A DNA stretch of 64,000 nucleotides, from NCBI GenBank assembly GCA_907165275.2, contig OU015675.1:7457501-7521500 (forward strand), in the 5' to 3' direction. The position numbers and the translations under genes are program-made. This stretch comes from Zygaena filipendulae (taxonomy: Eukaryota > Arthropoda > Insecta > Lepidoptera > Zygaenidae). The notes under the pieces are model-generated. The model did not search any database, was not told where the DNA came from, and saw only the letters and a list, made by a program, of their open reading frames with translations. Of this stretch, positions 12,615 to 54,123 are shown piece by piece (position 1 is the stretch's first letter; each line of letters opens with the position of its first letter).

Positions 12615-12831
12615 ATTGCAGCTGAATAAATTTTACAGGAGCAAATCGGAAATCGCTTTATTCAAAATAATCCTTCCAAGTTTAACGATTGTCTTTGCTT
12701 TGTTTTTCCTTAGAGCAGCCGAGCTAGTTTCGCATCCATAATAATATTTAGTATAGTACAGATGGATTTGTATCATTCGTACGGTTATACCGTACTGAAT
12801 AGTATATTTCTATAATATATGCGCATCAATA

Positions 12832-18117: not shown

Positions 18118-18440
18118 GGGATGATGACTACTATTGAAAATCAAAATTCTAATTAGTCCGTCAGTTAGAAAATTAAAAAAAACAATAGACACGTATTTTT
18201 TGCTTTTTTAAATAAATTAAAATATACAGAGATAAAGCGCATTAAAGTTTAGGATGAGGAGGTCGTGACGTCACTAACCACAAAACCGCCATACAAACTG
18301 TCAGAATAGTGACGTCACGCAAAATTTGAACTCAATATATCGCCGTTATTTTTTGATTACGTAAAAACAGAAAAAATACGTGTCCAATATTTTTTAATAA
18401 TCTACAAGACGGACTAAAAAAATAAAAATTAGTCAACATT
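18118..18440 (+). mobile_element. MITE family A, copy 3
   Basis: GGGATGATGACTAC at the left, AGTCCGTCAGTTAGAAAA near it, two GTGACGTCAC palindromes, and AGACGGACT..TTAGTCAACAT at the right. Confidence 0.85.
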
Positions 18441-19705: not shown

Positions 19706-19740
19706 AATTTTTGATGATATTTCTCTCGACGCAGCGAGCT

Positions 19741-23080: not shown

Positions 23081-23084
23081 TAAT

Positions 23085-23384
23085 GGGCATGTTGACTAAT
23101 TTTCATTTTTTAGTCCGTCTTGAAGATTATTAAAAAAATATTGGACACGTATTTTTTCTTTTTTTAAGTAATCAAAAAATTACGGCGATATATTGAGTTG
23201 AAATATCGCGTGACGTCACTATTCTGAGAGTTTGTAAGGCGGTTTTATCGGTTAGTGACGTCACGAGCCTCTCACCCTAAACTTTAATGCTCTTTATCTC
23301 TGTATATTTAAATTTATTTAAAAAAGCAAAAAATACGTGTCTATTGTTTTTTTATTTTCTAACTGACGGACTAATTACAATTTA
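23085..23384 (-). mobile_element. MITE family A, copy 4, one end truncated
   Basis: Starts GGGCATGTTGACTAATTTTC and carries GTGACGTCAC sites. Homology stops after GACGGACTAATTACAATTT, losing the other terminal repeat. Confidence 0.75.
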
Positions 23385-29346: not shown

Positions 29347-30755
29347 TTACAAAGGACAATTGTAGGCACCAGACGTGATAGTCAACTTGGTAACTACGTC
29401 AACGACAGCGTAAAGAAATGGTCTATTGACGATAAAATTATCAGCTGATTCTTGACAGCCTTCGCCGCCCATGCTTAAACCATCCTCACAGTAGGGAAAG
29501 ACACCCTGCGAGTCGACTCTGAACCTCACCCGCTCGTAGAGGGCGCTCGGTATGGCCGGCGGATCAGACACTAGGTTGGAACCATCAGGATCATACCACA
29601 ATTTCCTCACCCCCATCTGCTCCAATATATACCTCATTGACATATCGCTGGACTCCATTGTGAATTTAGGTATAGCTATATCAATTGGAATCTTCGTTTC
29701 TGTAGCGTTCTTTAAGATTTCTTTATTGATTGTCGTATCCAATTCATAGACGGTTTGCTCTAGTGGATCGCAGAAGTTGAGAACAAACATCATGACATAC
29801 CTTCCATCTTCACCGACGGGCAGAACTAACGCGCGAGACTTGTACTTCTCCAAGGGAGCTATCATGAAACGGTTCCTGGAATGCATAAGAGTCACAGTAC
29901 CTATAGGTTGTCCCATCTCGTTGTAAAATATGGCGTTTTCTTCTATTCCGGACAATAGAAATTCCGTTTGCCAAACGATGCTGTGGTCTACTGTGTTGAT
30001 CAAAAAGTTACCATCCAGGTTAATATATTGTCCCAATCGATTGTAGGTTATACAGTTGAGAGTTAGGAGAGCGACGCTCGGGTCGCGTCTCAAAGGCAAT
30101 GATAGCGCATAGTCGAGGATTCCTTTGCTGCGCACGTATGCGGCCCACGTTTCGTTCACACAAAAACTTTCATCGACGCCCAAGATTTTTGTAACAAAAT
30201 AACGGCTATTTTTTGAGCATTCAGATAGTGGTGGCCTCGAATTGAGGATCTGAACATAATATTTCTCTCTCAGGGCCCTATTATTTTCTGGTAGGCCAAG
30301 GGCGCGGAATAGTTCTATCTGCACGTCGCCCGTGGCTCCCTCCGCCATTGCAGCTAATTCCATATATACCATTTGGCGATATAACAAACATATCTTGGGT
30401 GTATTTCGCATTCAACTTGTATATGTTCATTGCAAAAGTGGAAACGGCATTATATATATCATCTTCTATATTATTATCGTATATATTAAATTGGTCATCT
30501 TTTGTATCACTGTTGCCGTATTTGCCAGTATCAGCATATTTATCAGTGTTGCCGCTATCGTCAGCATATGTAACACCATGTAACACTGTCGCCACGATCA
30601 TTAGGATATGTATCACTGTCGCCACGGTCGTTTCGGTCATCTTTTATGTCACTGTCGCCGTAGACTGAGTCTGCGTAGCTGGGGTCACATTGATCTTCAG
30701 ACAGCACCAGAACTGTCCAGCTCGATACTATTAGCAGCAGACTGGTAATCTTCAT
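29347..30755 (-). pseudogene. Serpin paralogue with two frameshifts
   Basis: An inverted copy of the gene at 19741-21087, very similar along its whole length. It begins with the signal peptide MKITSLLLIVSSWTVLVLS at 30755 and ends GAYNCPL-stop at 29347. Two lesions break the frame. In the Asp-rich extension a 10-bp unit is tandemly duplicated (30568-30577 and 30578-30587); without it the frame continues. About 200 bp further on, near 30361-30363, two bases are missing compared with the intact gene, after the ISPNG motif. The last 340 codons are open and keep the serpin C-terminal signature and the same Cys-containing loop. The good preservation suggests very recent loss, an assembly or sequencing error, or a partial product from an internal start. 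The two genes converge, with about 8.3 kb between their stop codons. Confidence 0.8.
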
Positions 30756-30808
30756 TATCGCTCTTATAATGCGCAAAAAATATGATGTGAGTTGCGGAGG
30801 GTCGGTTG

Positions 30809-30850
30809 TTTTATATTCGCATAAAATATGCAGTTGTGAAAATGTTGACA
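30809..30850 (-). promoter_or_regulatory. Promoter of the inverted serpin copy
   Basis: On the minus strand ATGCGAATATAAAACAACCG puts a TATA-like box at 30816-30809, matching the intact gene. The upstream TGTCAACATTTTCACAA is also shared. The promoter therefore appears structurally preserved although the coding frame is broken. Confidence 0.55.
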
Positions 30851-31129
30851 CAGCTTTGTAATATTCAAATTATTAGGTACATCCATAGGTATACTTACTA
30901 ATATTATACACATAAAATGCGAAAGTAACTCGGTCTGTCTATCTGTTACCTTTTCAAGCCTAGTTGTCAGGGCAAGGTTTTTTTGGAATATCTACGAGAG
31001 AAATCGGATTTGAATGGTAGGTTTTATTTTTATTTGAGAACACACTTAAACTAATCAAGAAATTTCGAAAACCGCTTGACCTATAAAGCTGTAACGACTG
31101 ACACGACCTTAGTTAATAGGGAGGAGGCG

Positions 31130-33396: not shown

Positions 33397-33480
33397 TATA
33401 TATAAGTGCGTATATAAGAGCAATCTGGGGCAATAGGAGCATTATATACCACGACAGCGGGTGGAATTTTCTATGTGAGT
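33397..33480 (+). promoter_or_regulatory. Promoter and non-coding first exon of four-Cys gene 1
   Basis: Two TATA-like runs occur (TATATATAAG at 33397-33406 and TATATAAG at 33411-33418). About 30 bases on is a likely transcription start near 33440-33450. A splice donor CTAT|GTGAGT follows at 33475. The matching acceptor ATAATTCACAG ends at 33951, one base before the A that precedes the ATG. An untranslated first exon is inferred because the second four-Cys gene also has an acceptor immediately upstream of its ATG. Confidence 0.5.
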
Positions 33481-33952: not shown

Positions 33953-36593
33953 ATGATACGCCTCATAGTATTGCCATTGGTGGCATGCGCTTGCGCTGTC
34001 GTCATCGCCGTCGGCGTTGATGGCACAGCACCTGTAGTCAAAACGACTGTAGTCACAAAGCCTGTAGTCACAACGCCTGCGGCTACAACACTCAAACCTA
34101 CTGCTGGCACGACCAAGGCCCCTTTAATCATACCCAAAACCTATCAAGATAATGAACAACTCATTTCTAATTTGAACTCCATTTATGCACAACTGTAAGT
34201 AAACAAGTTGTGTGAGTTGAGATGGGAAGTCTCTCGTTCTTTAAGTCAATATTTTATTTTTATAAGTTAGCGGAGATTAGTGGTGAAGGTGAACCGACGA
34301 CTCGGTGAAAGTCGCGGAGATACCATTGGATGCGGGCAGAGCACAGAACCGGTCGCGATCCTTGCGATCGGCGATCCTTAGGGGAGGCCTGTGTCCATCA
34401 GTGCACGTTTTTCGGCTGATTTGATGATGATGAATGGAGAATGGGAAGTTTTTTTGTTTTATTTAGATAGAGAGTAATGTCATTAGAATCCTCCATTATC
34501 GGAGCAATGATGTGGGATGGTTCTGCAGTCTGTTGATAAACTAAGTCTTCTATATTTATAAAAATGAATCCCTATTTCCCTTGGTGAGATAAGATAAACT
34601 TTATTCAGCAAAAACAAACACGTACACCATCCATACAACAAACACTATAGATAGTAAGTAAAACTATGTAGTGCAGTGCCTTCCACCTTCCTCCACTCAG
34701 CATATGCTGCGAACGTAGTCGTCACAGCGCTGATTTTCAGTGGAGCCCCAGCTCAAGGGAACGTATTTCTCCCCTTGGGTTAAATAAGTTAAATAACATT
34801 ATAAGACCGGAGAAACAGTTGTGACAATAGTACATTGTTATTCTAGGGGTAAAAGTAACTTATTTAGTCCCGAGACGGGGTTTGGCCAATAGATCGCCAA
34901 TAGATCGTGGGACTAAATAGTCTTTCTCCCGAGGATAACACTGTGCTTTTCATTACGAATGCAAGGAAAGTCAAAATAAAAATAGGAATTAGCTGAAGAA
35001 AAAATGAGTGAAGATCGGATAGTCGCTTGACACTTTCCCACCTATTTCTTTTTCTTTGGCCAGCTAGCTATTCAGCCAGTATTTTTTATTTACATTGTGG
35101 CGACCTAAAAAAAAAATATTTTCTTTAATTATTAAGTATTAATTAAAGAAAATAAAAAAATGTTAATTGGAATTAGCTTAAGAAAAAGTGAGTGAATTTT
35201 ATTTTAATACCTACTTAAACTTTACGTTATTTCAATTTTACATCGCGCTGGCTGTATAGAAAGTTGAAACATGGTTCAATAGAAATGTGAAAATAGACCT
35301 AGTTTTTTTTTAATAATTTGACAGTTGTCAGTTGAAAGCGATTCTCCCTAGGGCTGAAAAGGGTTACTTTCAACCCGCTTCTCAGGCAACGTCAGACCTA
35401 CTTTCCGAGTATGATTAATGAAAAAGCTATTACAGTTATAGTTGGTTATAGTACATGTTCTATCTTAAATAGGAAAAAAAAAACATTTAAGTAAGATAAA
35501 GACGAATCAATGTTTGAAATAACTTTCGTTTTCCAGCGCTCACACTAACAAACACTCATCGGATCGCCAGAAGAGAGCATACTCGATTATGCTTATAACA
35601 TTGCTACAAATTCTCGAAGACAGCAAACTGATAAATCTGAAGAGTCGAGTTGAGAGTAGGCTCGGAGCTATCAACGACTCCAGCATTCCGTATCCTGCTG
35701 CCGTTCTCGGGAGTCAGCCCAGAAGGACACTGGACATTTTGAGATCACATATCGAAAAGGTAGGACTCACTCGCGCGACTTATAGAACTCTAGTCAAGGG
35801 AAACCATAATAAGGTATCCACCATTAACGTAGCTAAGGATTTGATCAAGGGTTGCAGCAGGCTCCCGAACTAACCACAGTCATGTAGTGGGAGATCATAA
35901 TCTCCTGTTTGCATAGTATGGCCTCTTACATCATAAGTTAGAAGCGATTAAACAGTAAATTTCAATAAACTGTAAATTTTTCTAGGTTGGGCTAAGTAGT
36001 TTTTAGAGTGAGCAATGAGTATGGCCTACCCTGCCTGCTCCGCTAGCTACGTCTATGGAATCCACTTAACTTGTCTGCCTCTTTTGCTTTTGTTATGATT
36101 TTAGTCCATTTTATTCAGCTATTCCTTATCATCAGTTCTGTCCACTGCCAATTTACCTGTCTTATTTTCTTCAGTATTTATATCTTCCACGTTTGTTTTA
36201 GATCAAATTTTCCTTAATTCTTTCGTGATTTATTTTCAGCCAATGATCGTTATACAAAGATACTGTACTAAAAAAATGTCGGAGAGAGCATGCCGTGACA
36301 CCGTCGAAGCGGTCAGCCTGCGTATTCAGAATACTTGCCGCAACTATAACCACCATGTCCGGTTGAGGCATTTGACTTCAGAATTGAACAATGACATTGG
36401 AGTGAAAGCCATATTCAACCGCATAACAGAGAAGTCGAAGCTGAAAGGAAGCGATATGGAGAATTTCCTCTTTGTTTTCGACGATGTTGTACTGCATATA
36501 GATGATTATGTCAAACTATTGATATTTTACAAAGAACTCAAGAAACCCATTTATACTTGCAGGACACTTGAGAAAGATGATATTTTGGTTTAA
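33953..36593 (+). CDS. Secreted four-cysteine protein 1, three coding exons
   Basis: Coding exons 33953-34194, 35537-35759 and 36240-36593 join in frame to 272 codons. Donors GTAAGT and GTAGGA and acceptors TTTTCCAG and TTATTTTCAG all fit GT-AG; intron phases are 2 and 0. Residues 1-22 or so are a signal peptide (MIRLIVLPLVACACAVVIAV). A Thr/Pro/Val-rich mucin-like stretch follows (about 25-55, e.g. TTVVTKPVVTTPAATTLKPT), then exon 2 opens with RQKR|AYS (residues 91-94), a good furin site. Exon 3 has cysteines at its residues 9, 18, 33 and 107, the last in KKPIYTC near the C terminus. The downstream neighbour at 45720 has the same exon plan and cysteine spacing. I do not recognise the family. 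A secreted proprotein with two disulfides and a mostly helical mature domain is an inference; role unknown. Confidence 0.75.
34587..34790 (-). mobile_element. Non-LTR or SINE 3' end with TTATC tail
   Basis: Minus strand: CTCCACTGAAAATCAGCGCT, AAGGCACTGCACTACATAG, then CTGAATAAAGTTTATCTTATC. It matches 39180-39375 in the other orientation. It lies in intron 1 of four-Cys gene 1. Confidence 0.65.
34825..35415 (-). repeat. Repeat copy 2 of the inverted pair, in intron 1
   Basis: Inverted relative to 32010-32345, sharing CCCGAGGATAACACTGTGCT, CGAATGCAAGGAAAGTCAAA and TTGAAAGCGATTCTCCCTAG. Extra sequence in the middle makes it longer than copy 1. Confidence 0.6.
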
Positions 36594-36713
36594 TTGAATT
36601 CGGGATCCTTTGGGAATCTAACGATGGGATGCGGGCGTCTTATGTAGTTAAATGTAGATATTGACAAGAGCTTTTTAATTTATGACTTATACTAATTTAT
36701 TTGCAAAATACAA

Positions 36714-36719
36714 AATAAA
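36714..36719 (+). terminator. Polyadenylation signal of four-Cys gene 1
   Basis: AATAAA in CAAAATACAAAATAAACTT, 121 bases after the stop codon, a normal 3' UTR length. Confidence 0.6.
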
Positions 36720-36999
36720 CTTATAGTTTTATGAAGCATTGTTTATAGTTTCACTTCTGAAATGATTTTCCCCGAATTATTGCTTTTAGAACTGTTTACA
36801 GTTCAGATGCTCCTTACTTACCTAATCACGTCTCCGCGACTGATCCGATTTAGACCGAGTTTTTTATACATATAGATATACATATAATTTATTTATTATT
36901 TATTATTAGGCATAAAATTGTAACAGGTCGATGTCTGTACATGGGAGATAAATAAGAAAAAATGAATTTAGGCGACTCTATGAGTGATATAGAAGGCCA

Positions 37000-37270
37000 A
37001 GTATTTTTTTTCTTTTTTTACGTAATCAAAAAATAACGGCGATACATTGAGTTGAAATTTCGCGTGACGTCATTACCCGGCGCAGTTTGTACAGGGCTTA
37101 CCTATACTGAATAATGACGTCACGAGTCCCTCACCCTAAACTTTAATGCGCTTTATCTAAGTATGTGTATTTTAATTACTTTGAAGAAGAAAAAAATACG
37201 TGTCTATCATTTTTTTACTTTCTAACTGACGGATTAATTAGAATTTTGATTTTGCGTCGTCAACATCCCT
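37000..37270 (-). mobile_element. MITE family A, copy 5, diverged
   Basis: TTTTTTTACGTAATCAAAAA, GCGTGACGTCATT, AATGACGTCACGAG and CTAACTGACGGATTAATTAG. The left terminal repeat is missing. Confidence 0.7.
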
Positions 37271-37366
37271 TAAGCTCTAGGATTTATCGCGAAATAAAAG
37301 TGGTGATTAACCGTTACGCGAGAACGTAACGTCACACAGTAACGAAGTACCTATATACTTACATAT

Positions 37367-37600
37367 GGACGCAGATAAGCAATAACATGTTAACCCAGAA
37401 AATTAAGTTATTGATTCAGAACCATTTATTGAGAGTTAGGGAGCGTTTTTTAATTATGTGTTTACCTTATTACATTGCTCAAATGTGTAACCAAATATTG
37501 AACATAAAAATGTCTACAAAAATGGCGCTCCTACTTTTAAAACACGATTTACTCAAAATTTCTCCAGTGTGGGTTAACACACTATTGCTTATCTATGTCC
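37367..37600. mobile_element. MITE family B, copy 3
   Basis: Terminal repeats GGACGCAGATAAGCAATAAC and (reverse complement) GGACATAGATAAGCAATAGT. The body matches copy 1 closely, including AAAATGGCGCTCCTACTTTT. Confidence 0.85.
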
Positions 37601-37640
37601 ATATTATGTAGGTAATGAACAAACAAATGAAAACAAAAAT

Positions 37641-37875
37641 GGACGCAGACAGCAATAACATGTTAACCCACAAAATTAAGTTAGATAAGAAAGAACGATT
37701 TATTGAGAGTTAAGGAACGTTTTTTAATTATGCGTTTACCTTATTACATTGTTTATGTATGTAACTAAATATTGAATATAAAAAATGTTGACAGAAAATG
37801 GCGCTACAATTTTAAAACCCGATTTACTCAAAATTTCTCCAGTGCGGGTTAACACACTATTGCTTATCTATGTCC
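37641..37875. mobile_element. MITE family B, copy 4
   Basis: Same family and orientation, 40 bp after copy 3. The left end has a short deletion (GGACGCAGACAGCAATAAC). Confidence 0.85.
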
Positions 37876-38384
37876 AAATATGAGTTTCGAATTTATAACC
37901 CTGTCCCGAGTGAAAGACAGTGAATTAGGATTCTTTTAATAATAATTACATTTAAACAAGCGTTGTTTTATTAAAAAAAAACCTGCTAACAAACTGAATA
38001 TTATATGATTTTACTCACACTGATTTTTGCCATTTTAAAAACTACTAAAAACTAATATAAACTAATAAAACTATGCAACACCAGTAAAAGGTATACCTAA
38101 GTCCTAAGCGCAGTGCATTAATATTTAAGACCACTCTGTACATTTAGTAAGCAATGAATAAATAAATAAATAAATATGGTGAATGGTGACCTATTTATAA
38201 AATGGATAAACTCACAATTGATATTGATATGATGTGTATGTGTATATTACATATGTATGTATTGAGTTATTATAAAATGATTGTATATAATTTATGATAT
38301 TGTGTATTTATCTAATTTGTATTCTATTTACGTATGTATGGTATCTATTATTTAATTATACTGTTAACTAATTATCATGTATCT
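37876..38384. other. No gene; AT-rich sequence
   Basis: Short (AATA)n run at 38157-38176 and TATG-rich sequence. No feature is supported. Confidence 0.35.
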
Positions 38385-38660
38385 ATGTATCTATTTTTCT
38401 GCTTCGCTGCGCCGCACTCTGGGACGCTCGTGGGACTGCTGGCGCTGACTGAAAACCAGCGCTGAGGGTTCCCATCCTCAGCATATGCTGAGTCAGCTGC
38501 CATTTGCAGCAGCAGAGACACACCGCGACCAAAACCAGCCAACCAATATCTTTTTTCTTTTTAAGTTTAGTTTGTAATGAATTTGTTTGTGTTTTTGTTA
38601 TTAAGTTTTGTGTGTGTGTGTCTGTTGCGCAATAAAAAATATTCTATTCTATTCTATACA
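38385..38660 (+). mobile_element. Non-LTR or SINE 3' end with TTCTA tail
   Basis: CTGACTGAAAACCAGCGCTG and CTCAGCATATGCTGAG resemble the 34587/39180 family. A TG repeat, GCGCAATAAAAAATA and (TTCTA)n follow, a typical retrotransposed 3' end. Confidence 0.55.
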
Positions 38661-38731
38661 AGCTCGATAAACGCATACTAAGCCTGCCTATCATTGAACT
38701 ACGATCGCCTTCGTTCAAATATTATCTACCT

Positions 38732-38930
38732 ACTAGCTGCGCCCCGCGGTTTCACCCGCGGTAATTTCGGAGTTCCCGCGGGAATTTCGGGATAAAAAGT
38801 ACCCTATCTCCTTCTCTGTACCCCTGACAACGCGCATGCCAAATTTCATCCAAATCCGTTCAGCCGTTTTTGCGTGATTGAGTAACAAACATCCGTACAT
38901 CCACACTTTCACTTTCATATTAGTAGGATT
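38732..38930 (-). mobile_element. Helitron-like short element, full length
   Basis: ACTAG then the hairpin GCGGTTTCACCCGCGG, AGTTCCCGCGGGAATTTCGG, CAAATCCGTTCAGCCGTTTT and the 5' end ATATTAGTAGGATT. It is almost identical to 60631-60829, implying fairly recent spread. Confidence 0.75.
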
Positions 38931-39179
38931 TATTGGGTAGAAAAAACATCATCTTCAGCATTAATTTACCGACTTCAACGACAGAAGCTTTTTACTAGCA
39001 GCAGCTGCAGCAGGTAAATCTGATAATGTTAATTGGAACATGACTGCGTTTACACTTTACACGAATAAGCCTTTTCAACTGAGGCACAGGTCTCTCGCTT
39101 CTCGCAGGATGTTTGGCAACCCTAGTAAACCGTAAGTAAGCCCTATGACTTTGATAGTTCCGATAATTTCGCAGGCGAA

Positions 39180-39375
39180 ACGCTGGGGCTCCACTGGAAA
39201 TCAGCACTGTCGCTTCTCTACGGTCGCAGCTTAAGCTGAGAGGAGTCCGTTTTAGCAAGGCACTGCACTACATACTTTTATTTACCTTGATATTGTAAAG
39301 TGTTTGTTGCGTGGTGCACCTATGTGTTTGTTCTTGCTGAATAAAATTTATCTTATCTTATCTTATCTTATCTTA
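39180..39375 (+). mobile_element. Non-LTR or SINE 3' end with TTATC tail
   Basis: CTCCACTGGAAATCAGCACT, AAGGCACTGCACTACATACT, CTGAATAAAATTTATCTTATC repeat. Opposite orientation to 34587-34790. Confidence 0.65.
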
Positions 39376-40264
39376 AAGACCCTTGGTCATGAAGATACGA
39401 CGAGAAGGGAAGGGATTGTAATTTGTAACTTATTCTTTAGTAAAAGTTATAAACACACTCCACAGCAGCTACTCGAGGTTCAACCATTGTGTTTTACTGC
39501 TGACCCGTGACTGAACATGAAGAAACGTTCAAAGAGAAAGATTGTATTGGTGCTGACGACTTGGTACTTACCAATAGCCGTGTTTCGGATGTAGAGACAG
39601 TCCTTATGTACATAGTTGTGGAGCGACCACTCGTTTCTTGTTTCCGTCTAAAAAATTTCTATCACCCTTGAGAAGATTACCTATAGTAATAAAGCCTTTT
39701 GATGAGGTTATTGTGTTTTTTTGGGACAATAAAGTATTTTTGTAATGAATTGAATGATTTTATTTTATTTATTTATTAATGTTTTGCTGGGATAATTCCC
39801 AGCACAATAATGCTCAGCACATCTGGCTTGTGCTCGCACATTATAAATATGTGGGTACCTACACAGAATTCGACGCTGTTGTGTTCAGAGTTGAAACCTA
39901 ACCTAATTTAGCGCGTTGGGGTGTTTCTTTCTTCTTCTTATTGACTTTCGCATAATGCATTTAGCCAGTTTCAAGTAAAATTAGTCAGTTAAATGCTCAA
40001 ATTAGCGTTTAGCATCGTTGTACAATTTGAACTTGTGGGCTATGGTACTGATTAGACTACAAGAACTTTCTCGGAGCTCTTGGAGGATACCAAAGAAATC
40101 AGATCGAAATGTCATATATCTTCTTGAGCACACAAAAAAACATAACAGAATCCAATTTTTTTTTTGTTTTAACAATTTTTATCGACACGAAAATAAACGA
40201 ATGAACCGCCATCTTCGATGCCCGCCAACTCCGTTGGGGTGTTTGCAAAATATACGTACAAAAT
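39376..40264. other. No gene identified
   Basis: AT-rich sequence with several short open frames and no motif, splice or repeat evidence. Confidence 0.35.
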
Positions 40265-40407
40265 CACAGAGCAAATAAATTAACTAGAGAGGAAACGTAC
40301 CACCGTCGCAAACTTATTTGCTGTCCGAAACTTATTTTGCTGCCACCCCAAGTATATGTATTAACCACAATATTCCCAAAACTGTGAATTTTTAAAACAG
40401 TGACTAT

Positions 40408-42626
40408 TAGTGTTGCCCAAATTCAGTCTTGGTCTTGCAGTCTTGGTCTTGTTCTTGCGTTTTTGCAAGACCAAGACCAAGAACAAGACCGCGTATTTTT
40501 AGCAAGACCAAGACCAAGACTGACCGTGCAAGACTTGAGCAAGAACAAGACATAGCCTGCAGTGGCGAAGGGTGAAATATTGAGAGAGGTAACCCGGAAC
40601 AAAAAAAAATGCTACCTAATCCGGGTGCGGCACGCAGTTTTGAGTCCTTACCGAAAATCTGTGATTGGCATCCTGGCTTCAGTCTTGTATCTAGGCAGAT
40701 GACAGCTAATGTATCTTTAGTCCACTTTAATTATACGTGTAAGCACTCAGGTATTGAAACAATATCTTGCAACGCAAGTAACCTAATGCAAATCTACTTT
40801 AAATACCTACTTAATTTCTACATAGTAAACTATCTACTTACCGGCGGAATACCTAATTACAACGTACGCCTACGTACTAACTGCTTTCACTATCACTACA
40901 AACAACACAAATAAACAAAGTCCAACTACAATACAATACTAATCACTATTTTACACCAAGAAATAAATTGTAATAGATGAAACTAACTAATAAATTCAAA
41001 TACAAATTTAAGCATTTATGCAATGATGGTGAATAATGCAGGACGCAGGTGCATTATGCAATTACCTAAATACGTCAAATTTTCTGTCGTGTCAACAGTC
41101 AAAACAAATATCCGAGTCGTTACGAATTTCTACGAGCGATAGCGATGCAAGCATGTCGTAGACGGAGAATGAAAGCATATATTCCTCCATCTCGCTCACG
41201 CGCACGCATTTTCTAACATTGTACCTATCAGTATAACTCGATTTTCGTCGGCTTGCCAGAGTTCTACTGGGGTTTGAAGTGACCTTGTGATGTGACGTCA
41301 TTCTTGACGTTTATTTGTATAGAAGTTTAACTGCCAAAAAGCCGATCGTACCTGCGAGTTACTAGCAAGTAGTAACACGTTGTTAAACGTTGAAAAGCAA
41401 GTATTGTTGACTTAATGTGTAGGCGTTTTGTAATGTTTTATTTTATTTATTTTTATTTAATGTTTCTCTACTTTTAAAATGGTGTAAGCGTTTTGTAATG
41501 ATTGTCTTCTTTTAAAATAAAATTACTGATTATGCCATTTCTCAATTACGGTAGAGAGAGTAGTTACGTTCCAAGCTTTTGAAGGGAAGCCGGTGGGAAT
41601 CGGGTTATATGGTATCTTCGCTACTGATAGCCTGCAAGACTCTTGCGTCTTGCAGCTAGGACTTAGCGCTATTTCACTGAGTAGTTAGGTGAAGACGTAA
41701 TAGACTTTGATAAACTCTATGAATGTCCCTCGACGTCATCTGGATCTTGTCTTCAAGGCTTAGTGATAGACGAGTTGGAGGAGTACCTGAGAAAACCAAG
41801 AACTGCCAGCTCGGAAGACATTTTAGATTGGTGGAGGACGCATGAGACAGAGTATCCGATTTTATCGAAAATGGCCCGTGATTTTCTCTCAATACCTGCA
41901 ACTTCAGTACCTGCTGAGAGGTTATTTTCTAAAGCATCATTAGTAATTAGAAAACAGAAATAGGTTAAGTGATGAGTCAGCCAGATGGTTACTTTGTATT
42001 AATTCTTGGTAAATCGGTATAAGTTCTTGGTAAAAAAAAATTATATAAAGTATCATAACCTAATGATAAAGCTGTTGATTTGTGTTGTATTTTATTTTTT
42101 ATTCAAATAAATGATAAATCGTAAAACTCTTTTATTAAATTTCTTATAAGTTGAGGGTTCAATCTCTTTCTAGACAGATAAGTATTGTTCTTTAAAATAC
42201 AGTCAAGTTATTGTAATTAATTTGTTTTTTTACATGTTTTAGCAAATGTAAGCTTATAAATCATAAATGTTTATTAAGAAACAGTTACTTCCATGGAAAA
42301 CGACATATAGGTCAGTTGATTTTTCGAATTTCTTATCAAATTTTCAGTTATTTATTAATCTGCTTGATCTTTACTATGGCTATGTTAATTCAAGCTCACA
42401 ATGTTCCAATTCTAATACGTTTTTCTAAGATTTAAAGTAAACTTTAATAAATAGTAATAGACTAATAGGTAATTGCAAGACTTGCAAGACTCTTGCTGCA
42501 AGACCAAGACCAAGACCAAGACTGGGAGCGCAAGACCAAGACCAAGACCAAGACCAGGTGTATTGGCGCAAGACCAAGACCAAGACTGGCTAAGTCTCGT
42601 CTTGTTCTTGCATTTGGGCAACACTA
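40408..42626 (+). mobile_element. Degenerate hAT transposon, 2.2 kb
   Basis: Perfect 8-bp target duplication GTGACTAT at 40400-40407 and 42627-42634. Terminal inverted repeats TAGTGTTGCCCAAAT are at both ends. Subterminal arrays of AAGACC / GGTCTT units (about 40430-40560 and 42475-42610) likely act as transposase-binding repeats. The interior retains only the C-terminal end of a transposase gene, so the element is non-autonomous. Confidence 0.9.
41685..42012 (+). pseudogene. hAT transposase C-terminal fragment
   Basis: After a stop at 41682 the frame is open for about 92 codons and contains the hAT dimerisation domain: DILDWWRTHETEYPIL, ARDFLSIPATSVPAERLFS. It stops at RKQK near 41962, but shifting frame there gives RNRLSDESARWLLCINSW and a stop at 42010-42012, the usual hAT C terminus. 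The fragment thus has one frameshift and lacks the zinc-finger and RNase-H-like catalytic parts. Only the last part of a typical hAT transposase (about 600 residues) remains. Confidence 0.88.
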
Positions 42627-42837
42627 GTGACTATAAGTAAAAGCTAATCATAATACAGTTTTAGCGTTTAATACAGTTCTTTTACGATTTAGTGCGTGCT
42701 CAATAGGGTGCGAAAATCACTCAGCGACATTGATCTGTTTTCATACTACAACTAAGTTGATGTCCCTTCTATCTGTTATTTTCTGTTCTGTGTACAAAGT
42801 AGCACCATTTTCTATCCTCGGTATTAATTTTCATCCA

Positions 42838-42969
42838 TTCATTCCATCCCCATTCCAGGTCGGCAACGCACCTGCAAGCCTTCTGGTGTTGCAGATGTCT
42901 ATGGGCGGCGGTAATCACTTACCATCAGGTGTACCACTTGCCCGTTTGCCCCCTATGACATAAAAAAAA
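42838..42969 (+). mobile_element. SINE S1 3' fragment
   Basis: CCCCATTCCAGGTCGGCAAC, TTGCAGATGTCTATGGGCGG, CCCCCTATGACATAAAAAAA. It lacks the tRNA-like head. Confidence 0.75.
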
Positions 42970-42994
42970 CCGGTCTTTCGTAAACGGTTACAAT

Positions 42995-43320
42995 GGGCAT
43001 GTTGACTAATTTTTATTTTTTAGTCCGTATTGTAGATTATTAAAAAATATTGGACACGTATTTTTTTATTTTTTTACGTAATCAAAAAATAACGGCGATA
43101 TATTGAGTTGAAATTTCGCGTGACGTCACTATTCTGACAGTTTGTATGGCGGTTTTAGTGGTTAGTGACGTCACGACCCCCTAACCCTAAACTTTAATGC
43201 GCTTTATCTCTGTATATTTTAGTTTATTTAAAAAAGCAAAAAATACGTGTCTATCGTTTTTTTATTTTCAAACTGACGGACTAATTAGAATTTTGATTTT
43301 CAAAAGTAGTCCACATGCCC
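42995..43320 (-). mobile_element. MITE family A, copy 6
   Basis: GGGCATGTTGACTAATTTTT at the left and (reverse complement) GGGCATGTGGACTACTTTTG at the right: well-preserved inverted ends GGGCATGT(T/G)GACTA. Two TGACGTCAC sites. Confidence 0.87.
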
Positions 43321-44062
43321 ATTTGCCAGCAACAGATAGGTACAGGACCTACGTAGTCTACGTACGTCTGACCTAACGTCCTCTCACAGTCGCTCTTTCC
43401 TTCCCACTCATTCTAACTTTAAACAGAAAATTCCTCTCTATTTAAGTCAAAACAATAATAAAAGGTTGTTTTTCAATACGACGAGTAGGTATTAAGATTA
43501 TATTCTCCGTTGCGAATTTTTAAATTTAAATAATCAAACTGAAATTAAGCAGATCACAATAAACAACAAACACAATAACAATAAACGTATCATATTTACT
43601 AATTATCCATCAGATTTCAAGCTTCATTTGTATAATTAGCAACACCCACGTGTCGTCCAAATGACGCCAGCAACTTACCTATTTGTTTAGTTCACTCGTT
43701 TTCATTCTGTGGCTTTGCTTAGATAATTGTGTTTTAATTGAAATATGAACTACATTATAATTGGGGAAAATTTTAACTGCACATCAGAAAACTTATATGC
43801 ACGCTAAATGTAGCACAGTAAGTCTACGGGTTACATGAATCAGCAATGATTACGCCAAAACTAGTGCTGAATTTAGATTTGCAAGCACTCTTACTTTCTA
43901 GGTTAGGTTAAGTTGGAGCAACGACCACAACGCGTGAGATGAGCGAGCGTATCGAGCGTACCGCGGCGCCAGCGATGCGCCAAAGCCAGATGCAGTGTAC
44001 ATATTTTGGTGTACAATTAGTATTTAAGATAAAAAAGTAAAAAGAGAGACATGAATAATAAT
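43321..44062. other. No gene identified
   Basis: No repeat or coding frame is supported; a GC patch (ACCGCGGCGCCAGCGATGCG) lies near 43960-43980. Confidence 0.35.
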
Positions 44063-44383
44063 GGGGATGTGGACTACTTTTGAAAATCAAAATTCTAATT
44101 AGTCTGTAAGTTAGAAAATAAAAAAACAATAGACACGTATTTTTTGCTTTTTTAAATAAATTAAAATATAGAGAGATAAAGCACATTAAAGTTTAAGGTG
44201 AGGGGTTCGTGACGTCACTAACCGCTAAAACCGCCATACAAACTATCAGAATAGTGGCGTCACGCGAAATTTCAACTCAATATATCGCCGTTATTTTTTG
44301 ATAACGTAAAAAAAAAAATACGTGTCCAATATTTTTTAATAATCTACAAGACGGACTAAAAAATAAAAATTAGTCCACATGCC
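44063..44383 (+). mobile_element. MITE family A, copy 7
   Basis: GGGGATGTGGACTACTTTTG left end and (reverse complement) GGCATGTGGACTAATTTTTA right end. One site is GTGACGTCAC; the other has mutated to GTGGCGTCAC. Inverted relative to copy 6. Confidence 0.85.
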
Positions 44384-45254
44384 TATTCCAAACCCAAACG
44401 AGCAGAGCTTATAAATGACTTTTTAGCGGGGGAAGAGCGAGAGGAGCGGTCGCTCTAGGCACCAGATACGAAAGGGCGCCAAGAAATCAAATGTGAAAAT
44501 TTGAAAAACAATTTGCAGCAAAAAATAAAAGTATAATTTATGAGAAGTGAAATCGCCTACTTAATCAATCAGTCAAGTCAAAAAATCAAGTCAATCTCGC
44601 TCTACCCTGATCAAAGAGTAGCGCCGGCCCCTTTTGTCAGTTACCTATATTTGGATTCGAGACTGCTCTACCAAGTTTTATTCGTACTTAGTTCATATTA
44701 CAGACCGACAGACACATCCCCCGTTGCAGTATAATAATTACTTTTCCTATACGTCATAATTTCTTCCTTAGTTATCGTTTCGATTGTTAGCTTTAATTGC
44801 TTATCACGGTTCAAAGGTATAAAAACAAATGATGTGACTACTCTGGCACAGTGGTTGCTGGGCTGACACAAGGTGAGTGCGGGTTCGTTCGTGGATCCGA
44901 TCCGTTTTTGCACATCATTCGCACACTAAGCGACAGACGTCCATTGCTGGGATTTTAAGAGTCTCCTTAGGATGTATACGTAAAATGAAAAACCGATCTT
45001 TAAGTTACATCTACATGGGTCTATTTTAAAGTTTCTCAAACAAGGTTTTTGGAAATTCAACCCCTATCTGTATCGAAGTACGAAATCATGTTTTTTTTTT
45101 CCATCATGGAATTCTTCTTCATTAACTAAGGCATTTATCGCATTTTATCGCATTTAATTTTTGCCAACGACAATGTTTTATGAATAAAAATCGGTGTTTG
45201 TGCTATTACATCAATAAATCTTACAAATACTTATCAATACTTACTTATCAATAC
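44384..45254. other. No gene; SINE-like head inside
   Basis: 44840-44930 (CTCTGGCACAGTGGTTGCTG, GCGGGTTCGTTCGTGGATCC) looks like a degraded tRNA-derived SINE head on the plus strand. The remainder is AT-rich. Confidence 0.4.
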
Positions 45255-45546
45255 ATCTTCTATCTATACTATAATAAAAGAGTAGAATCCGCGATTTTGT
45301 TCATTGAATATTTTTGACAAATTTTGACAGGAAGTAATAAAAGAAGAGTGACCAACCCCAAAAAAGGGTTTTTAAAATTCTTTTCTGTCTGTCTGTCGGT
45401 CTGTTCGCGATAATCTCCGAACCTACAGAACGAATTTTCATGCGGTTTTCATAGGTAGATTAAGCTAAAGCTGGAGCGGAGCTGGAGAGGATGTTGGGAA
45501 AAAAGTTGTTATACAAAAACTTTTCATGCGGGTGAAACAGCTAGTT
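45255..45546 (+). mobile_element. Helitron-like element, subfamily 2
   Basis: ATACTATAATAAAAGAGTAG start, TGTCTGTCTGTCGGTCTGTT, AATTTTCATGCGGTTTTCAT, ending GCGGGTGAAACAGCTAGT, where the second half of the hairpin is deleted. It sits upstream of four-Cys gene 2. Confidence 0.6.
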
Positions 45547-45719
45547 TCAGATAATAATTTAAAACTAATTAAAACTAGTAATTTAACCCCCAACGGGAAA
45601 ACGGTCAGTAATTTTTAAGATCAAGGTGTCTGACTAAAAAAGGTTACTCTTCAAGAAGGTTAACATTACTTCCTAAACAGAAAGGCGTGTGTACTAATTT
45701 CCACGTGTTATTATACAGG

Positions 45720-48420
45720 ATGTTGCGTTATCTGGCGATATTCTCCGTCGTTATATACACATGTTCGTCGAACAGTCTGTCGGTATGGATCAAAAATGAG
45801 GCGCTGGTCGAAAACATCGAACTGCTATTCAATAAACTGTGAGTACCTATACCAGTGGTTTTCAACAGGCTTTAGATAAGTACCCACAAGTCACAACCCA
45901 CCCCATATGACAACTTATATGCAACATTTCATGGCGGTCGATTCAGCAGTTTAGCTCAGTGGTTGCGTTCGGGTCAAACTTCACAAGGAGTAAATTCAAA
46001 CCCTAATAATGAACTTAAGCTATCGGTGAAGGAAAACATCGTGAGGTAACCATAGCATGGTGGTAGGGCACTTTCTAATGCCCGGCTGGCTATCACCTTC
46101 AAGTTGTAAATCGCCAAGCACCTAACGGTGTGTTCCGGCAGCCCCACTTGAAAGGCATCCCCATTCCAGGTCAGCAACGCACCTGCATGCCTTCTGATGT
46201 TGCAGATGTCTATGGGCAGCGGCAATCACTTACCATCAGGTGTCCTACCTGCCCATTTGCCCCCTATGACATTAAAAAAAATCACGCACACAAGGCTGCG
46301 TACATGCGACGCAGTCTTTTTAGCCTGCTTTAAATGGCTTCACTCTGCTTCCCCAGGACACAAACCAGCGCGGACAGTCTTAACCGGGTGACACGGGCCC
46401 ACTCCGTCATCTCTCTGGCTATCCTGCGGGTGCTGGAGGAGGGTCCGCTCCCCCTCGGCGGATCGGAGGCCAATCAGATCGAGCACAAGTTGAAAGTATC
46501 CAAGACTCTCAGCTCAATGCGGATAAACCTGAACCTACCCTCAGAAGTGATGGCCGGGCCGGCGCGCAGGGACCTGGCGATTATCAAATCAATCATAATG
46601 AAGGTTTGTTGTTAAAATCTTACACCGATATAATAATTATTATCATAAAAAGTTTGTGAGTGTGTGAGTTTGTGACGTTGTAGGGGGTAATCTTTGGATC
46701 TACTCAACCGATTTTAAAAATTTTTTGACTTATAGGAAGCTACAGTGGTCCTGAGTATCATAGGGTAGTTTTAATTTCGGAATTCCCTTGGGAACTTTGA
46801 ATTTCCCGCGGGTAAAACCACGGGGAACTACTATCTCTGGATCTACCAAACAGATTTTGAAAATTCTTTCACTTTTAGGAAGCTACAGTGATCCTAAGTG
46901 ACATAGGGTGCTTCTTATCCCGGAATTCCTGCGGGAACTTCGGGGTTTCGGGTGTTTTTGTGAGATTTTAGGGGGTAATCTCTGGATCTACTGAAACGAT
47001 TTTAATAATCCACATCACAACACACAGATCTACTTGATCCCACAATAAGCTATAAGCTTGTGTCGTGGAAACCAAGCAAACGTAGTATATACTACATATT
47101 ATTACATATCTATTATACTATAGATATATATATACGCCCAGACTGGAAAATGGAACCCTGTGTTCATCACACAAAGTGCACCCCCACCGGGAATCGAACC
47201 CGGAACCCCTTGATTAGCGGGCAGGCATGGTGACCTACTGCACCATTCGGGTCGTCGATATCTTTGTACATTAGAAGTTTAAGTAACATATATAATATTA
47301 TCACTAGCTGTTCCTCCCGGTTTCAACGGCGTTAATTTCGGAGTTCCCGCAAAAATACAATATATATAAAATAAAAGCACCCTATGTCTTACTCCAGACT
47401 ACTATAATCTATCTCTGTGCTTCATCCCATCTAATTCCGTTCAGCCGTTTTGGCGTGACTGATAAGCAAACCACCATCCATCCAAACCTTCACATCTATA
47501 GGTACATTTATTATATGTATGTACATATACATATCGTCGCTGCGCGTGCGATCCCGCGTAAGAGCAATTTGTTAATACCGCGTAACAATAAAACACACTA
47601 AGCTCAAATAAGTGATTTTGTAGAAAGCAGAAGAAAACTACGGGTAAATTTACGTTATTTTCCAATAAAGTTGTGAAGCACAAGCTGTTAAGTTCAGTCG
47701 GTAATAAGAATTGAAATCGCCGAGATATTAAGTTTTTTATTCCTCCTGTCAAAACGTAAATACGCGGTCTTTACAAGTTGCTCTTACGCGGATTCGCATG
47801 CGCAGCGACGATATATTATGTAAAATTTGTGAGTTTGTGACGTTTAAGGAGTAGGTAATCTCTGGATCTACTGCAGCGATTTTTAAAATTCTTTCACTTA
47901 TAGGAAGCTACGGTAGTCCCAAGTGACATAGGGTACTTTTTATCCCGACTTTCGCACGGAAACTACGAAATCACCGCGGGCAAAACCGCAGGGGACAGCT
48001 AGTAGTATGGATAAATATATAGATTGAAATAACTGCCTTCCATTGATATATACGGAAAATTTTCTCCAGCCGTCGATGATAGTACAGAAGAATTGCGGTC
48101 CCGAAGTGTCGAACGTGACCTGTCTCTTCGGCGTGGTCTACGATACAGCTGCGGAGCATGACAAGTGCCTTAACTACCTGAACCATGTGGACCTCTTTGA
48201 CCACTCTCTGCGCCTGACCTCGGACGTTTCCATCATCAACCTGTTGAAGGACCTCGGCAACCAAGCGCAGAAGGGCCAAGACGACCTGAAGAATTTGGCC
48301 TACGTAGCAGCCAGCGTCATCAGCAACCCCAAGGAGTATCTCAAAATCCTCATGTGGTACAGGAAGTTGAAACTGCCGATATATGATTGCCTTCAACTGG
48401 ATACCGACATACTTTTGTAA
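45720..48420 (+). CDS. Secreted four-cysteine protein 2, three coding exons
   Basis: Coding exons 45720-45838, 46357-46603 and 48070-48420 join in frame to 238 codons. Donors are GTGAGT and GTTTGT; acceptors are CTTCCCCAG and TTTCTCCAG. Intron phases are 2 and 0, exactly as in four-Cys gene 1. An acceptor (TTATACAG) ends one base before the ATG, so an untranslated first exon is likely upstream. Residues 1-19 or so are a signal peptide (MLRYLAIFSVVIYTCSS). Exon 2 starts with an RVTR|AHS site (residues 50-53), aligned without gaps to RQKR|AYS of gene 1. Exon 3 cysteines fall at positions 9, 18, 33 and 107, identical spacing. The C terminus YLKILMWYRKLKLPIYDC.. matches YVKLLIFYKELKKPIYTC... The Thr-rich stretch of gene 1 is absent. 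Probably a secreted proprotein; function unknown. Confidence 0.78.
45943..46281 (+). mobile_element. SINE S1, nearly full length, in intron 1
   Basis: tRNA-like head (TTTAGCTCAGTGGTTGCGTT; B-box-like AATTCAAACCC), body GAAAACATCGTGAGGTAACC, and tail CCCCCTATGACATTAAAAAA. It ends about 75 bases before exon 2 of four-Cys gene 2. Confidence 0.85.
46650..47010 (+). mobile_element. Helitron-like elements, tandem copies in intron 2
   Basis: A variant with GTGAGTTTGTGACGTTGTAG and GGGGTAATCT(T/C)TGGATCTAC occurs in two partly overlapping units. The first ends TTCCCGCGGGTAAAACCACG, the second at TCCTGCGGGAACTTCGGGG. Confidence 0.6.
47178..47251 (-). mobile_element. tRNA-like SINE head in intron 2
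   Basis: Minus strand: TGGTGCAGTAGGTCACCATG and CCGGGTTCGATTCCCGGTGG. The B box and a T-arm are clear, but the acceptor arm is not, so a SINE is more likely than a tRNA gene. Confidence 0.5.
47303..47510 (-). mobile_element. Helitron-like element in intron 2
   Basis: ACTAGCTGTTCCTCCCGGTT, GTTAATTTCGGAGTTCCCGC, CCGTTCAGCCGTTTTGGCGT. Confidence 0.6.
47531..47814. mobile_element. MITE with inverted repeats of about 37 bp, in intron 2
   Basis: Left ATATCGTCGCTGCGCGTGCG and right (reverse complement) ATATCGTCGCTGCGCATGCG, continuing as A(T/A)CCCGCGTAAGAGCAA-type sequence. Interior AT-rich, no gene. Confidence 0.75.
47822..48003 (+). mobile_element. Helitron-like element in intron 2, complete 3' end
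   Basis: GTGAGTTTGTGACGTTTAAG, TAATCTCTGGATCTACTGCA, the hairpin CCGCGGGCAAAACCGCAGG and CTAGT at 47999-48003, ending 66 bases before exon 3. Same variant as 46650-46830. Confidence 0.7.
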
Positions 48421-48506
48421 GGCTCCGTTCATGGTACAATTAGTATAGGTCATAATTTATTTGTGGAAAGCTCTTGTTAATATATTAGTTATAGATAATA
48501 ACAATA

Positions 48507-48825
48507 GGGATGTTGACGACTTTTGAAAATCAAAATTCTAATTAGTCCGTCAGTTAGAAAATAAAAAATCATTAGACACTTATTTTTTTATTTTTCAAAT
48601 AAATGAAAATACACAGAGATAAAGCGCATTAAAGTTTAGGGTGGGGGCTCGTGACGTCACTAACCGCTACTAGCCGCAATACAAACGGCACTTGTTAGTG
48701 ACGTCACGCGAAATTTCGACTCAATGTATCGCCGTTATTTTTTTATTACGTAAAAAAGAACAAATACGTGTCCAATATTTTTATTAATCTACAAGACGGA
48801 CTTAAAAAAAAAATTGTCAAATAGC
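48507..48825 (+). mobile_element. MITE family A, copy 8
   Basis: GGGATGTTGACGACTTTTG left end, two GTGACGTCAC sites, AGACGGACTT near the right. It begins 86 bases after the stop of four-Cys gene 2, so it may supply part of the 3' UTR or its poly(A) signal (an AATAAA lies near 48559). Confidence 0.8.
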
Positions 48826-48947
48826 CTATTACAATAATAATAATATATTCCGATGAAAAAAGAAAGTGGGTTGTTTTTTAATTATCTATATAAAATAACA
48901 TGTAATAATAAAAAATAGGTAAAAATAGTTAAACATGTTTGCAAAAA

Positions 48948-50475: not shown

Positions 50476-50990
50476 ATACATACACTGCAATTTTGCCATA
50501 TAAATCTTACTGCAATTTTGCCACTGGAATTGATCGTGTCTGTTACATTAAAATAAGTATTCAAAACAGTAATAAAAAGGAAATTTTAGTACCTAGGTTT
50601 TTTTAATTTCACAATGTCTTGCTTTGGTCTATGCACATTTTTTGCAAACAAATTTTACTTTTAATTCGAATTTGAAAGAACTAATTTCCTTAATATAGGT
50701 ATAGAAAAAATTTTAAATTTGGAAGAAATACAACCATAGATACGTTATACTTCCCCTCGCAGAGAATGGGCTAGCTAGGTACCTACACTCAGAACCCACC
50801 GCAATATTGCAATTTTCCACCCCGCGCACATGCGTGGCGCTGGCGCATGAAACATTCATGATGCATTCATGAGTATTTGTTATTTTAATCCCGATGATCT
50901 ATTGGCTGTGGTATTGGACGGTGTTATGCTAGATAGCTTGAGGAATGGAGATGGGTTCGCTTGGGTGGGAACAGCAGAAATAGATCTTTA
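50476..50990. other. No gene identified
   Basis: AT-rich sequence, with an unremarkable GC patch near 50820-50850. Confidence 0.35.
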
Positions 50991-50991
50991 T

Positions 50992-51180
50992 CGATATTGA
51001 TATTGATATTGATATTGGTATTGGTATTGGTATTGATATTGATATTGATATTGATATTGATATTGATATTGATATTGATATTGATATTGATATTGATATT
51101 GATATTGATATTGATATTGATATTGATATTGATATTGATATTGATATTGATATTGATATTGATATTGATATTGATATTTA
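50992..51180. repeat. Hexamer microsatellite (TATTGA)n
   Basis: About 31 units of TATTGA, with a short run of TATTGG variants near the left end. The long open frame read through it is only the repeat. Confidence 0.97.
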
Positions 51181-53402: not shown

Positions 53403-53680
53403 TCTTAATAAATTATTAGTTTCCAGGCACACTCCCCCACACAAAATTGAATTTGAATGAAGGAGGTACCTAACTAAGATGAAATTTCAAATTTTAATCA
53501 TTACATCATCACTTAGAAGTCTGAAATTTTAGATTGTAACAATTCCAAGCGTTTTAAAGTAACGTGTAGGTTCATAATTAGAATTTGTCACTGATGCAAG
53601 TAAACACTAAGTATTTAATTTGTCAGTAAATAGGATGTAATTTGCAGATTTTCAAACGTCGATTCCAAAATGAGCGTAAA

Positions 53681-54123
53681 AAAAATTTTTAACAAAAAAA
53701 TTAAAACCGACTTCCAAAAACACAAAACTGAAAAGCTAAAAATAAAATGCTAAAATTAACAACAAAATACCGATTCAATCCAAAAGACAAAAACACACGT
53801 AATATTATTATTGGTTTGTGCTACCACTGATCGGTTTGAATTCGGTGACAAGCCCGCTGGTGTCTGCTCACTTGGGTTGTTCTGCTCACGAAGAGCTGGT
53901 GGCGGGAGTCGACTTAGCCCATCTACCCCCTCCATATTTGGCTTGTCACCGACTTCATACCGATCAGTGGTAGCACAAACCAATAATAATATTACGTGTG
54001 TTTTTGTCTTTTGGATTGAATCGGTATTTTGTTGTTAATTTTAGCATTTTATTTTTAGCTTTTCAGTTTTGTGTTTTTGGAAGTCGGTTTTAATTTTTTT
54101 GTTAAAAATTTTTGTTTATTTTT
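53681..54123. mobile_element. Long foldback element family C, copy 2
   Basis: Arms of about 180 bp, from AAAAATTTTTAACAAAAAAA through ACCGACTTCCAAAAACACAA to GTGCTACCACTGATCGG and GGTGACAAGCC, repeated inverted on the right. The spacer (about 53863-53941) includes TTGGGTTGTTCTGCTCACGA. Two identical reading frames occur on opposite strands simply because it is palindromic. Confidence 0.88.

What the first reader, a model, noticed from the sequence alone, without database searches (positions are those of the whole stretch)
33953..48420. Tandem pair of unrecognised four-cysteine secreted proteins
Seen: two plus-strand genes 9 kb apart whose exons join cleanly (272 and 238 codons), both with intron phases 2 then 0. 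In the last exon the cysteines sit at positions 9, 18, 33 and 107 in both, with no gap needed across about 100 residues. Most other residues differ, so the spacing is under constraint. Shared motifs: P-I-Y-x-C near the C terminus and Y-x-K-x-L-x-x-Y-x-x-L-K just before it. Inference: an old tandem duplication of a fast-evolving secreted family held together by two disulfides.
Basis: partly seen in the sequence, partly recalled or inferred. Interest (0 to 1): 0.75.

Follow-up and report, generated by a model that had tools for sequence, protein, structure and literature searches.

The report
Twin unnamed secreted insect proteins
Two neighbouring genes in a moth or butterfly genome are confirmed as old, far-diverged duplicates that encode probably secreted, helix-rich proteins with four matching cysteines; they match no described protein family tested here, but so far they look like an uncharacterised insect protein family and no more.

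Summary
Both gene models join as stated (272 and 238 codons, GT-AG introns, phases 2 then 0). Outside the signal peptides each protein has exactly four cysteines, at codons 9/18/33/107 of the last exon. A and B are paralogs (BLASTP E 2e-28); silent sites are saturated while the protein is kept. Single-protein searches of the window's own 366-Mb genome show only these two copies. Additions: R-x-x-R-A at the same codons of exon 2 in both (possible furin site, unproven), and an AlphaFold model (two sequences, best pLDDT 60) that is helical, its only two bridge residues being cysteines 3 and 4. No credible match in Pfam, NCBIfam, PHROGs or the PDB; the protein collection holds few lepidopteran proteins, so orphan status is unproven. 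DUF725, DUF1397, OS-D/CSP and L-fibroin are not listed by Pfam scans. One weak lead: after its phase-2 intron, A resembles L-fibroin after its own phase-2 intron without a gap; B does not, and unanchored comparisons are null. Best reading: a two-copy, diverging, disulfide-clamped helical extracellular protein family, probably binding or structural; tissue and partner unknown. Low to moderate interest.

The parts
33411..33418 (+). gene A: candidate TATA box (TATATAAG); a leader exon would run from about 33441 to 33474
   Evidence: one of 14 TATA-like matches in 33-49 kb, so weak alone; donor TAT|GTGAGT at 33475 is in the 97th percentile of GT sites by my own recalled weight matrix; inferred, no transcript data
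33953..34194 (+). gene A coding exon 1 (codons 1-80 and two bases): presumed signal peptide, Thr/Pro/Val-rich stretch, start of domain; possible splice acceptor CACAG one base before the ATG
   Evidence: acceptor pyrimidine content only 0.54
34031..34079 (+). 15-bp tandem repeat (3.3 copies) that encodes the Thr-rich stretch of A; no such stretch in B
35537..35759 (+). gene A coding exon 2
35565..35576 (+). A: R-Q-K-R (residues 91-94), complete codons 10-13 of exon 2, candidate proprotein-convertase site shared with B
36240..36593 (+). gene A coding exon 3 with stop; cysteine codons at 36264, 36291, 36336, 36558
36714..36719 (+). gene A: AATAAA poly(A) signal
44818..44872 (+). gene B: tentative TATA (TATAAAAA) and leader exon; donor AAG|GTGAGT at 44873
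   Evidence: tentative, no sequence similarity to A's upstream region; no second copy in the window at E <= 1e-3
45720..45838 (+). gene B coding exon 1 (presumed signal peptide and start of domain); possible splice acceptor ATACAG one base before the ATG, as in A
   Evidence: acceptor pyrimidine content 0.62
46357..46603 (+). gene B coding exon 2
46385..46396 (+). B: R-V-T-R (residues 50-53), complete codons 10-13 of exon 2, at the same place as R-Q-K-R in A
48070..48420 (+). gene B coding exon 3 with stop; cysteine codons at 48094, 48121, 48166, 48388
48560..48565 (+). gene B: first AATAAA after the stop (lies inside a repeated element)

Best explanation
A and B are two working, diverged tandem paralogs that encode soluble extracellular proteins: a signal peptide, then an all-helical domain of about 210 residues whose C-terminal half is clamped by two disulfides, most likely C1-C2 (9-18) and C3-C4 (33-107), the last one tying the P-I-Y-x-C tail back to the C-x-N-Y-x-x-H-V stretch. 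Shown: gene structure, paralogy, conservation of protein over silent sites, four cysteines. Inferred: secretion, pairing, helices. Proposed function: a binding or structural protein of an extracellular fluid or gland secretion (haemolymph, reproductive or silk/salivary), not an enzyme, since the residues kept between A and B (Cys, Leu, Tyr, Pro, Asn, Arg, Lys, Asp, spread along the chain) form no catalytic set that I recognise. A carries an added Thr-rich, possibly O-glycosylated stalk, and the two copies differ in charge (pI 9.6 against 6.9).
For: Gene structure and paralogy; selection pattern; exactly four cysteines outside the presumed signal peptides; hydrophobic start in both (highest 19-residue hydropathy 2.94 in A, 1.40 in B) and nothing above 1.27 in windows after residue 30; helical models from two runs on the same two sequences, the better one with single bridge residues at 126 and 200 of mature A, i.e. 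cysteines 3 and 4; only two copies seen in the own genome by single-protein searches (4 matches at E <= 0.001 of 4 scored, all exons of A or B; 4 matches at E <= 10 of 5 scored, likewise) and in 264 kb by profile.
Against: No transcript, proteome or tissue evidence. The models rest on two sequences: best mean pLDDT 47.2 and 59.8, the other four of the second run 53.1 to 38.3, and the stretch around cysteine 4 is below 50, so the fold and the pairing are weak. First exons are not alignable above chance. Function is inferred from absence of recognised catalytic features, which is weak. Donor 46604 of B is poor (91st percentile).
Confidence: 0.6

Rival explanations
1. Proprotein ligand: both proteins are cut at the shared R-x-x-R|A site early in exon 2, freeing a cytokine-like helical, two-disulfide C-terminal domain from an N-terminal propeptide.
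For: R-Q-K-R-A-Y-S in A and R-V-T-R-A-H-S in B sit at the same complete codons (10-16) of exon 2, with R, R, A and S identical. A's site also fits the fuller furin consensus R-x-K-R (consensus recalled).
Against: Two conserved arginines are not rare in a 28% identical pair; A has a second R-x-x-R (171) that B lacks. In the model the site lies near the start of a helix in blocks of pLDDT 47 and 59, so exposure is unclear.
Confidence: 0.15
2. Far-diverged relatives of the silk protein L-fibroin (fibroin light chain), kept for another secretion.
For: Both helical and of similar size (mature about 210-245 residues). An alignment made before I looked at any L-fibroin intron puts the A/B phase-2 intron two residues from where the own genome's L-fibroin (C22) has a phase-2 intron (my reading of the two outputs). 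Anchored there, the next 28 residues of A score 21 ungapped: best of 228 places in own L-fibroin and of 235 in the recalled B. mori one, 5 of 18152 other windows as good, 2 of 5000 shuffles. Profile A+B anchored there: first 80 columns z 3.7, 1 of 200 shuffles as good; whole stretch z 2.4, 2 of 120.
Against: B alone at the same anchor is unremarkable (rank 23 of 228; 1775 of 18152 windows as good; A+B together 58 of 18152), and the 20 residues before the intron do not match (scores -18 and -35). Unanchored comparison is null: 330 and 140 of 1000 shuffles as good, hhalign probability at most 0.16%, ends-free z 0.55 with the reversed profile scoring higher. The second introns do not coincide in the alignment, and anchoring exon 3 at L-fibroin's phase-0 introns gives z 0.6 and 0.4. 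A has no Trp, an invariant of L-fibroin, and the cysteines do not align. Pfam L-fibroin rings only at C22 in the genome. The anchored test was built after the resemblance was noticed.
Confidence: 0.1
3. A divergent branch of another known insect secreted family (OS-D/CSP, odorant-binding, DUF725, DUF1397) beyond profile reach.
For: All are small secreted insect proteins with conserved cysteines (partly recalled); CSPs have four cysteines and helices (PMC12940638, passages).
Against: None is listed for the full proteins, mature parts or single exons in Pfam at E up to 10, though the program's filters drop most weak matches. CSPs have 110-120 residues and two disulfides between closely spaced cysteines; here the domain is about 210 residues and cysteines 3 and 4 are 74 apart. 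The genome-wide DUF725 search found nothing, but no control genome rang either, so it is uninformative; those for DUF1397 and OS-D did not complete.
Confidence: 0.1
4. Non-functional copies: one or both genes are no longer expressed.
For: A broken serpin copy lies 3 kb upstream, so gene decay does occur here; no expression data.
Against: Both frames are intact over 819 and 717 bases with correct splice ends despite saturated silent sites.
Confidence: 0.04

Closest known systems
L-fibroin (fibroin light chain, PF05849)
   Same: Secreted, all-helical, similar length, with an intramolecular disulfide; a phase-2 intron near the start of the domain, followed by a phase-0 intron, in the gene of this genome.
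   Different: No profile or pairwise match; three invariant cysteines in L-fibroin against four here, no Trp in A; five introns in the part of the gene read here against two.
OS-D / chemosensory proteins (PF03392)
   Same: Four cysteines, helical, small secreted insect proteins.
   Different: 110-120 residues and disulfides between closely spaced cysteines; here about 210 residues, last two cysteines 74 apart; not listed by Pfam.
   Same: Secreted insect proteins with conserved cysteines (recalled).
   Different: Not listed by Pfam scans at E up to 10.

Membership tests
L-fibroin (PF05849) | match to the family profile | tested here: not met
   Not listed at E <= 10 for A, B, mature parts or exons; positive control: recalled B. 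mori sequence 1.2e-98; genome search with the profile: 5 matches at E <= 10, all on C22
L-fibroin (PF05849) | three invariant cysteines plus invariant Trp and Arg (PMC9504780, passages) | tested here: not met
   A has no Trp; four cysteines, none aligned with those of L-fibroin
L-fibroin (PF05849) | 10-helix core fold | tested here: inconclusive
   model is helical but mean pLDDT 60; the recalled B. mori L-fibroin finds no relative among PDB sequences at E <= 1 beyond one chance row, so no structure to compare with
L-fibroin (PF05849) | intron positions and phases | tested here: inconclusive
   the phase-2 intron can be matched, the next cannot
OS-D / CSP | about 110-120 residues, two disulfides each joining closely spaced cysteines | tested here: not met
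   length and spacing; the pairing itself is not known; Pfam not listed
DUF725 | match to the family profile | tested here: not met
   the genome-wide search rang nowhere, controls included, and adds nothing
DUF1397 | match to the family profile | tested here: not met
   the genome-wide search did not complete
secreted two-disulfide insect proteins (the working class) | even number of cysteines outside the signal peptide, conserved between copies | tested here: met
secreted two-disulfide insect proteins (the working class) | signal peptide and no membrane segment | tested here: inconclusive
   hydropathy only; no signal-peptide predictor at hand
secreted two-disulfide insect proteins (the working class) | transcription, secretion and disulfide pairing | not testable with these tools
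   no RNA or protein data

The most novel reading that the evidence does not exclude
A and B are relatives of the L-fibroin fold outside the silk light chain itself: a two-copy, diverging branch that shares L-fibroin's phase-2 intron and helical scaffold, lost the heavy-chain-linking cysteine, and re-pinned its C-terminal half with its own two disulfides for a different extracellular role.
Probability: 0.1. Interest if true: 0.65.

Novelty: new member of a known kind. Interest (0 to 1): 0.33.

Why it matters
Diverging secreted insect proteins without a domain name are easily missed by annotation; a two-copy pair with a fixed gene structure and cysteine frame is a clean seed for a new family profile. 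If the L-fibroin lead held, it would give the silk light chain, whose core is described as a novel 10-helix structure (PMC9504780, abstract), a relative outside silk and a route to its origin.

Tried and rejected
Homologs: B alone and the A+B alignment against 5.8 billion proteins gave none of 818 candidates (E <= 0.001) and none of 7292 (E <= 10). Control with the intact serpin of this window gave one hit among 6072 candidates, a Trichoplusia ni protein at 28% identity, so the collection holds few lepidopteran proteins and the null is weak. Pattern scans confirmed no relative: 143 and 32 stretches of viral contigs, 9 of genome contigs. B's last exon in phages by tblastn: none. NCBIfam: best E 0.0094, a bacterial flagellar L-ring model in one of two members, far from credible; PHROGs: best 0.065; Pfam: best 0.12 for the full proteins, 0.1 for the parts. 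PDB sequences: best E 0.34 and 0.22.

Upstream regions of A and B share only chance-level words (best E 0.21); introns share one 11-base word. Extra copies: none in 264 kb by profile; the 5 further rows have E 0.92 to 4.9, the 16 further rows in the window alone 0.35 to 12.

Minor idea dropped: that the tentative leader of B is a repeat; it has no second copy in the window. Papers: ten searches named no matching family in the listings; beyond listings I saw the abstract and passages of PMC9504780 and passages of PMC12661448, PMC12940638 and PMC3998921. The library holds open-licence papers only.

Full report
WHAT WAS CHECKED. The stated exons were read and joined. Gene A (33953-34194, 35537-35759, 36240-36593) gives 272 residues, gene B (45720-45838, 46357-46603, 48070-48420) 238; every intron is GT...AG and the phases are 2 and 0 in both. 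The last exons align without any gap, 31 of 116 positions identical, cysteines at 9, 18, 33 and 107 in both. BLASTP between A and B gives E 1e-30 without and 2e-28 with composition correction. Against 1000 shuffles exon 2 and exon 3 each align far above chance, exon 1 does not.

AGE AND SELECTION. 18 of 22 fourfold-degenerate sites differ; third codon positions are 29% identical, second positions 60% (190 codons, the first 39 aligned ones left out). Introns and upstream regions show no alignable remnant. This is an old duplication with the protein kept. In the window's own genome (366 Mb, 56 contigs, window at C26:7457501-7521500) a search with B at E up to 0.001 found four matches, its own three exons and A's last exon (4 candidates, all scored); a search with A at E up to 10 found its own three exons and B's last exon (4 matches of 5 scored). 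The tool calls such counts lower bounds. Since these searches bridge the 24-26% identity between A and B (E 5.6e-11 and 2.6e-10), a third copy as close as that should have appeared; a more distant one need not. A profile of A and B run over the window plus 100 kb on each side found only A and B.

ORGANISM. The genome holds an L-fibroin gene on C22 (5 matches, four over the family's cut-off, best E 2.1e-25), a family of moths and caddisflies (PMC9504780, abstract). Its protein, read from L030, shares 112 of 255 aligned columns with my recalled B. mori sequence, against about 25% reported between moths and caddisflies (same paper, passage). The genome is therefore most likely lepidopteran; the species, and whether moth or butterfly, is not known to me.

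ANATOMY. Both proteins start with a hydrophobic segment and have no other strongly hydrophobic stretch. A then has a Thr/Pro/Val-rich stretch from a 15-bp repeat, possibly a mucin-like stalk, which B lacks. Outside the presumed signal peptides only the four last-exon cysteines remain. R-Q-K-R-A-Y-S (A) and R-V-T-R-A-H-S (B) lie at the same codons of exon 2. Both ATGs are preceded, one base upstream, by CAG, so both genes may have a non-coding first exon; for A a TATATAAG and a fair donor fit (33411, 33475), for B there is a weaker candidate (44818, 44873). TATA-like matches are common here (14 in 16 kb) and both acceptors are pyrimidine-poor (0.54, 0.62), so these leader exons are predictions only.

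STRUCTURE. With only two sequences AlphaFold gave best mean pLDDT 47.2 for full B and 59.8, pTM 0.59, for mature A (the other four models 53.1 to 38.3). Both best models are helical. In the better one the only two residues marked as strand or bridge are 126 and 200, which are cysteines 3 and 4 (numbering checked), consistent with a C3-C4 disulfide; that leaves C1-C2. Residues 196-210 are below pLDDT 50, so this is support, not proof. No fold match rose above the common helical background.

KNOWN FAMILIES. Pfam lists nothing credible for A or B (best E 0.12 full length, 0.1 in parts), nor do NCBIfam (best 0.0094, a bacterial flagellar model in one member), PHROGs (0.065) or PDB sequences (0.34 and 0.22). 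The large protein collection returned nothing, but its coverage of Lepidoptera is poor: the serpin of this same window found one protein only. 'Unrecognised' therefore means no curated family, not no relatives.

THE L-FIBROIN LEAD. Resemblance of length and helicity led me to L-fibroin. Pairwise shuffles (330 and 140 of 1000 as good), hhalign (probability at most 0.16%) and ends-free profile alignment (z 0.55; the reversed profile scores higher) are all null. However, the own genome's L-fibroin has a phase-2 intron two residues from where the unconstrained alignment places the A/B phase-2 intron (my reading), and with the two introns superposed A matches the following 28 residues ungapped better than at any other of 228 places in own L-fibroin and of 235 in the recalled B. 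mori sequence; 5 of 18152 other windows do as well. The A+B profile anchored there gives z 3.7 over 80 columns (1 of 200 shuffles as good) and 2.4 over the whole (2 of 120). Against it: B alone does not show it (rank 23 of 228; 1775 of 18152 windows as good; A+B together 58 of 18152), the residues before the intron do not match, the next introns do not coincide and exon 3 shows nothing (z 0.6 and 0.4). As the test was built after the fact I give the relation about 10%.

MECHANISM. Most likely an extracellular binding or structural helical protein clamped by two disulfides; tissue and partner unknown. The neighbours (one intact and one broken serpin, and two further small ORFs with signal-like starts 14-16 kb upstream of the window) also look secreted, which would fit a stretch of genes for a body fluid or gland secretion, by association only. 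A cytokine-like proprotein is the main functional rival.

VERDICT. A correct, careful observation of an ordinary kind of thing: a small, uncharacterised, diverging, probably secreted protein family in a lepidopteran.

Noticed in passing
19738-21084 (+) and about 29350-30869 (-): Two serpin genes, 81.8% identical over 1162 alignment columns: the first is one intact open frame with an acidic, cysteine-bearing N-terminal extension; the second, inverted, is spread over three frames and looks broken.
   Followed up: partly
L013:4234-4809 and L013:5412-5960 (+), 14-16 kb upstream of the window: Two tandem ORFs with signal-like starts and a shared 'GHELDRLAGTW' stretch, lipocalin-like by eye (recalled motif), no credible Pfam match.
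   Followed up: partly
48502-48827 and seven more places (12289-12618, 12827-13147, 18112-18436, 23078-23383, 37006-37270, 43002-43323, 44054-44391): A repeated element of about 0.27-0.34 kb, 82-89% identical to the copy directly behind gene B; one copy lies inverted 0.4 kb behind gene A.
   Followed up: partly
53678-54116: Near-perfect inverted repeat, arms of 177 bases, 98% complementary, 85 bases apart: a foldback element.
   Followed up: no
50989-51178: Array of 31.7 copies of TATTGA, 98% matches.
   Followed up: no
41685-41963 (+): Match to the hAT transposase dimerisation domain between A and B (E 1.2e-19).
   Followed up: no
47179-47252 (-): Marginal tRNA match (31.8 bits, cut-off 29) inside intron 2 of gene B, perhaps a tRNA-derived SINE.
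   Followed up: no
L030:2300-7254 (G000:C22): L-fibroin gene of the same genome, six exons read, intron phases 2, 0, 0, 2, 0; its first (signal peptide) exon was not located.
   Followed up: yes
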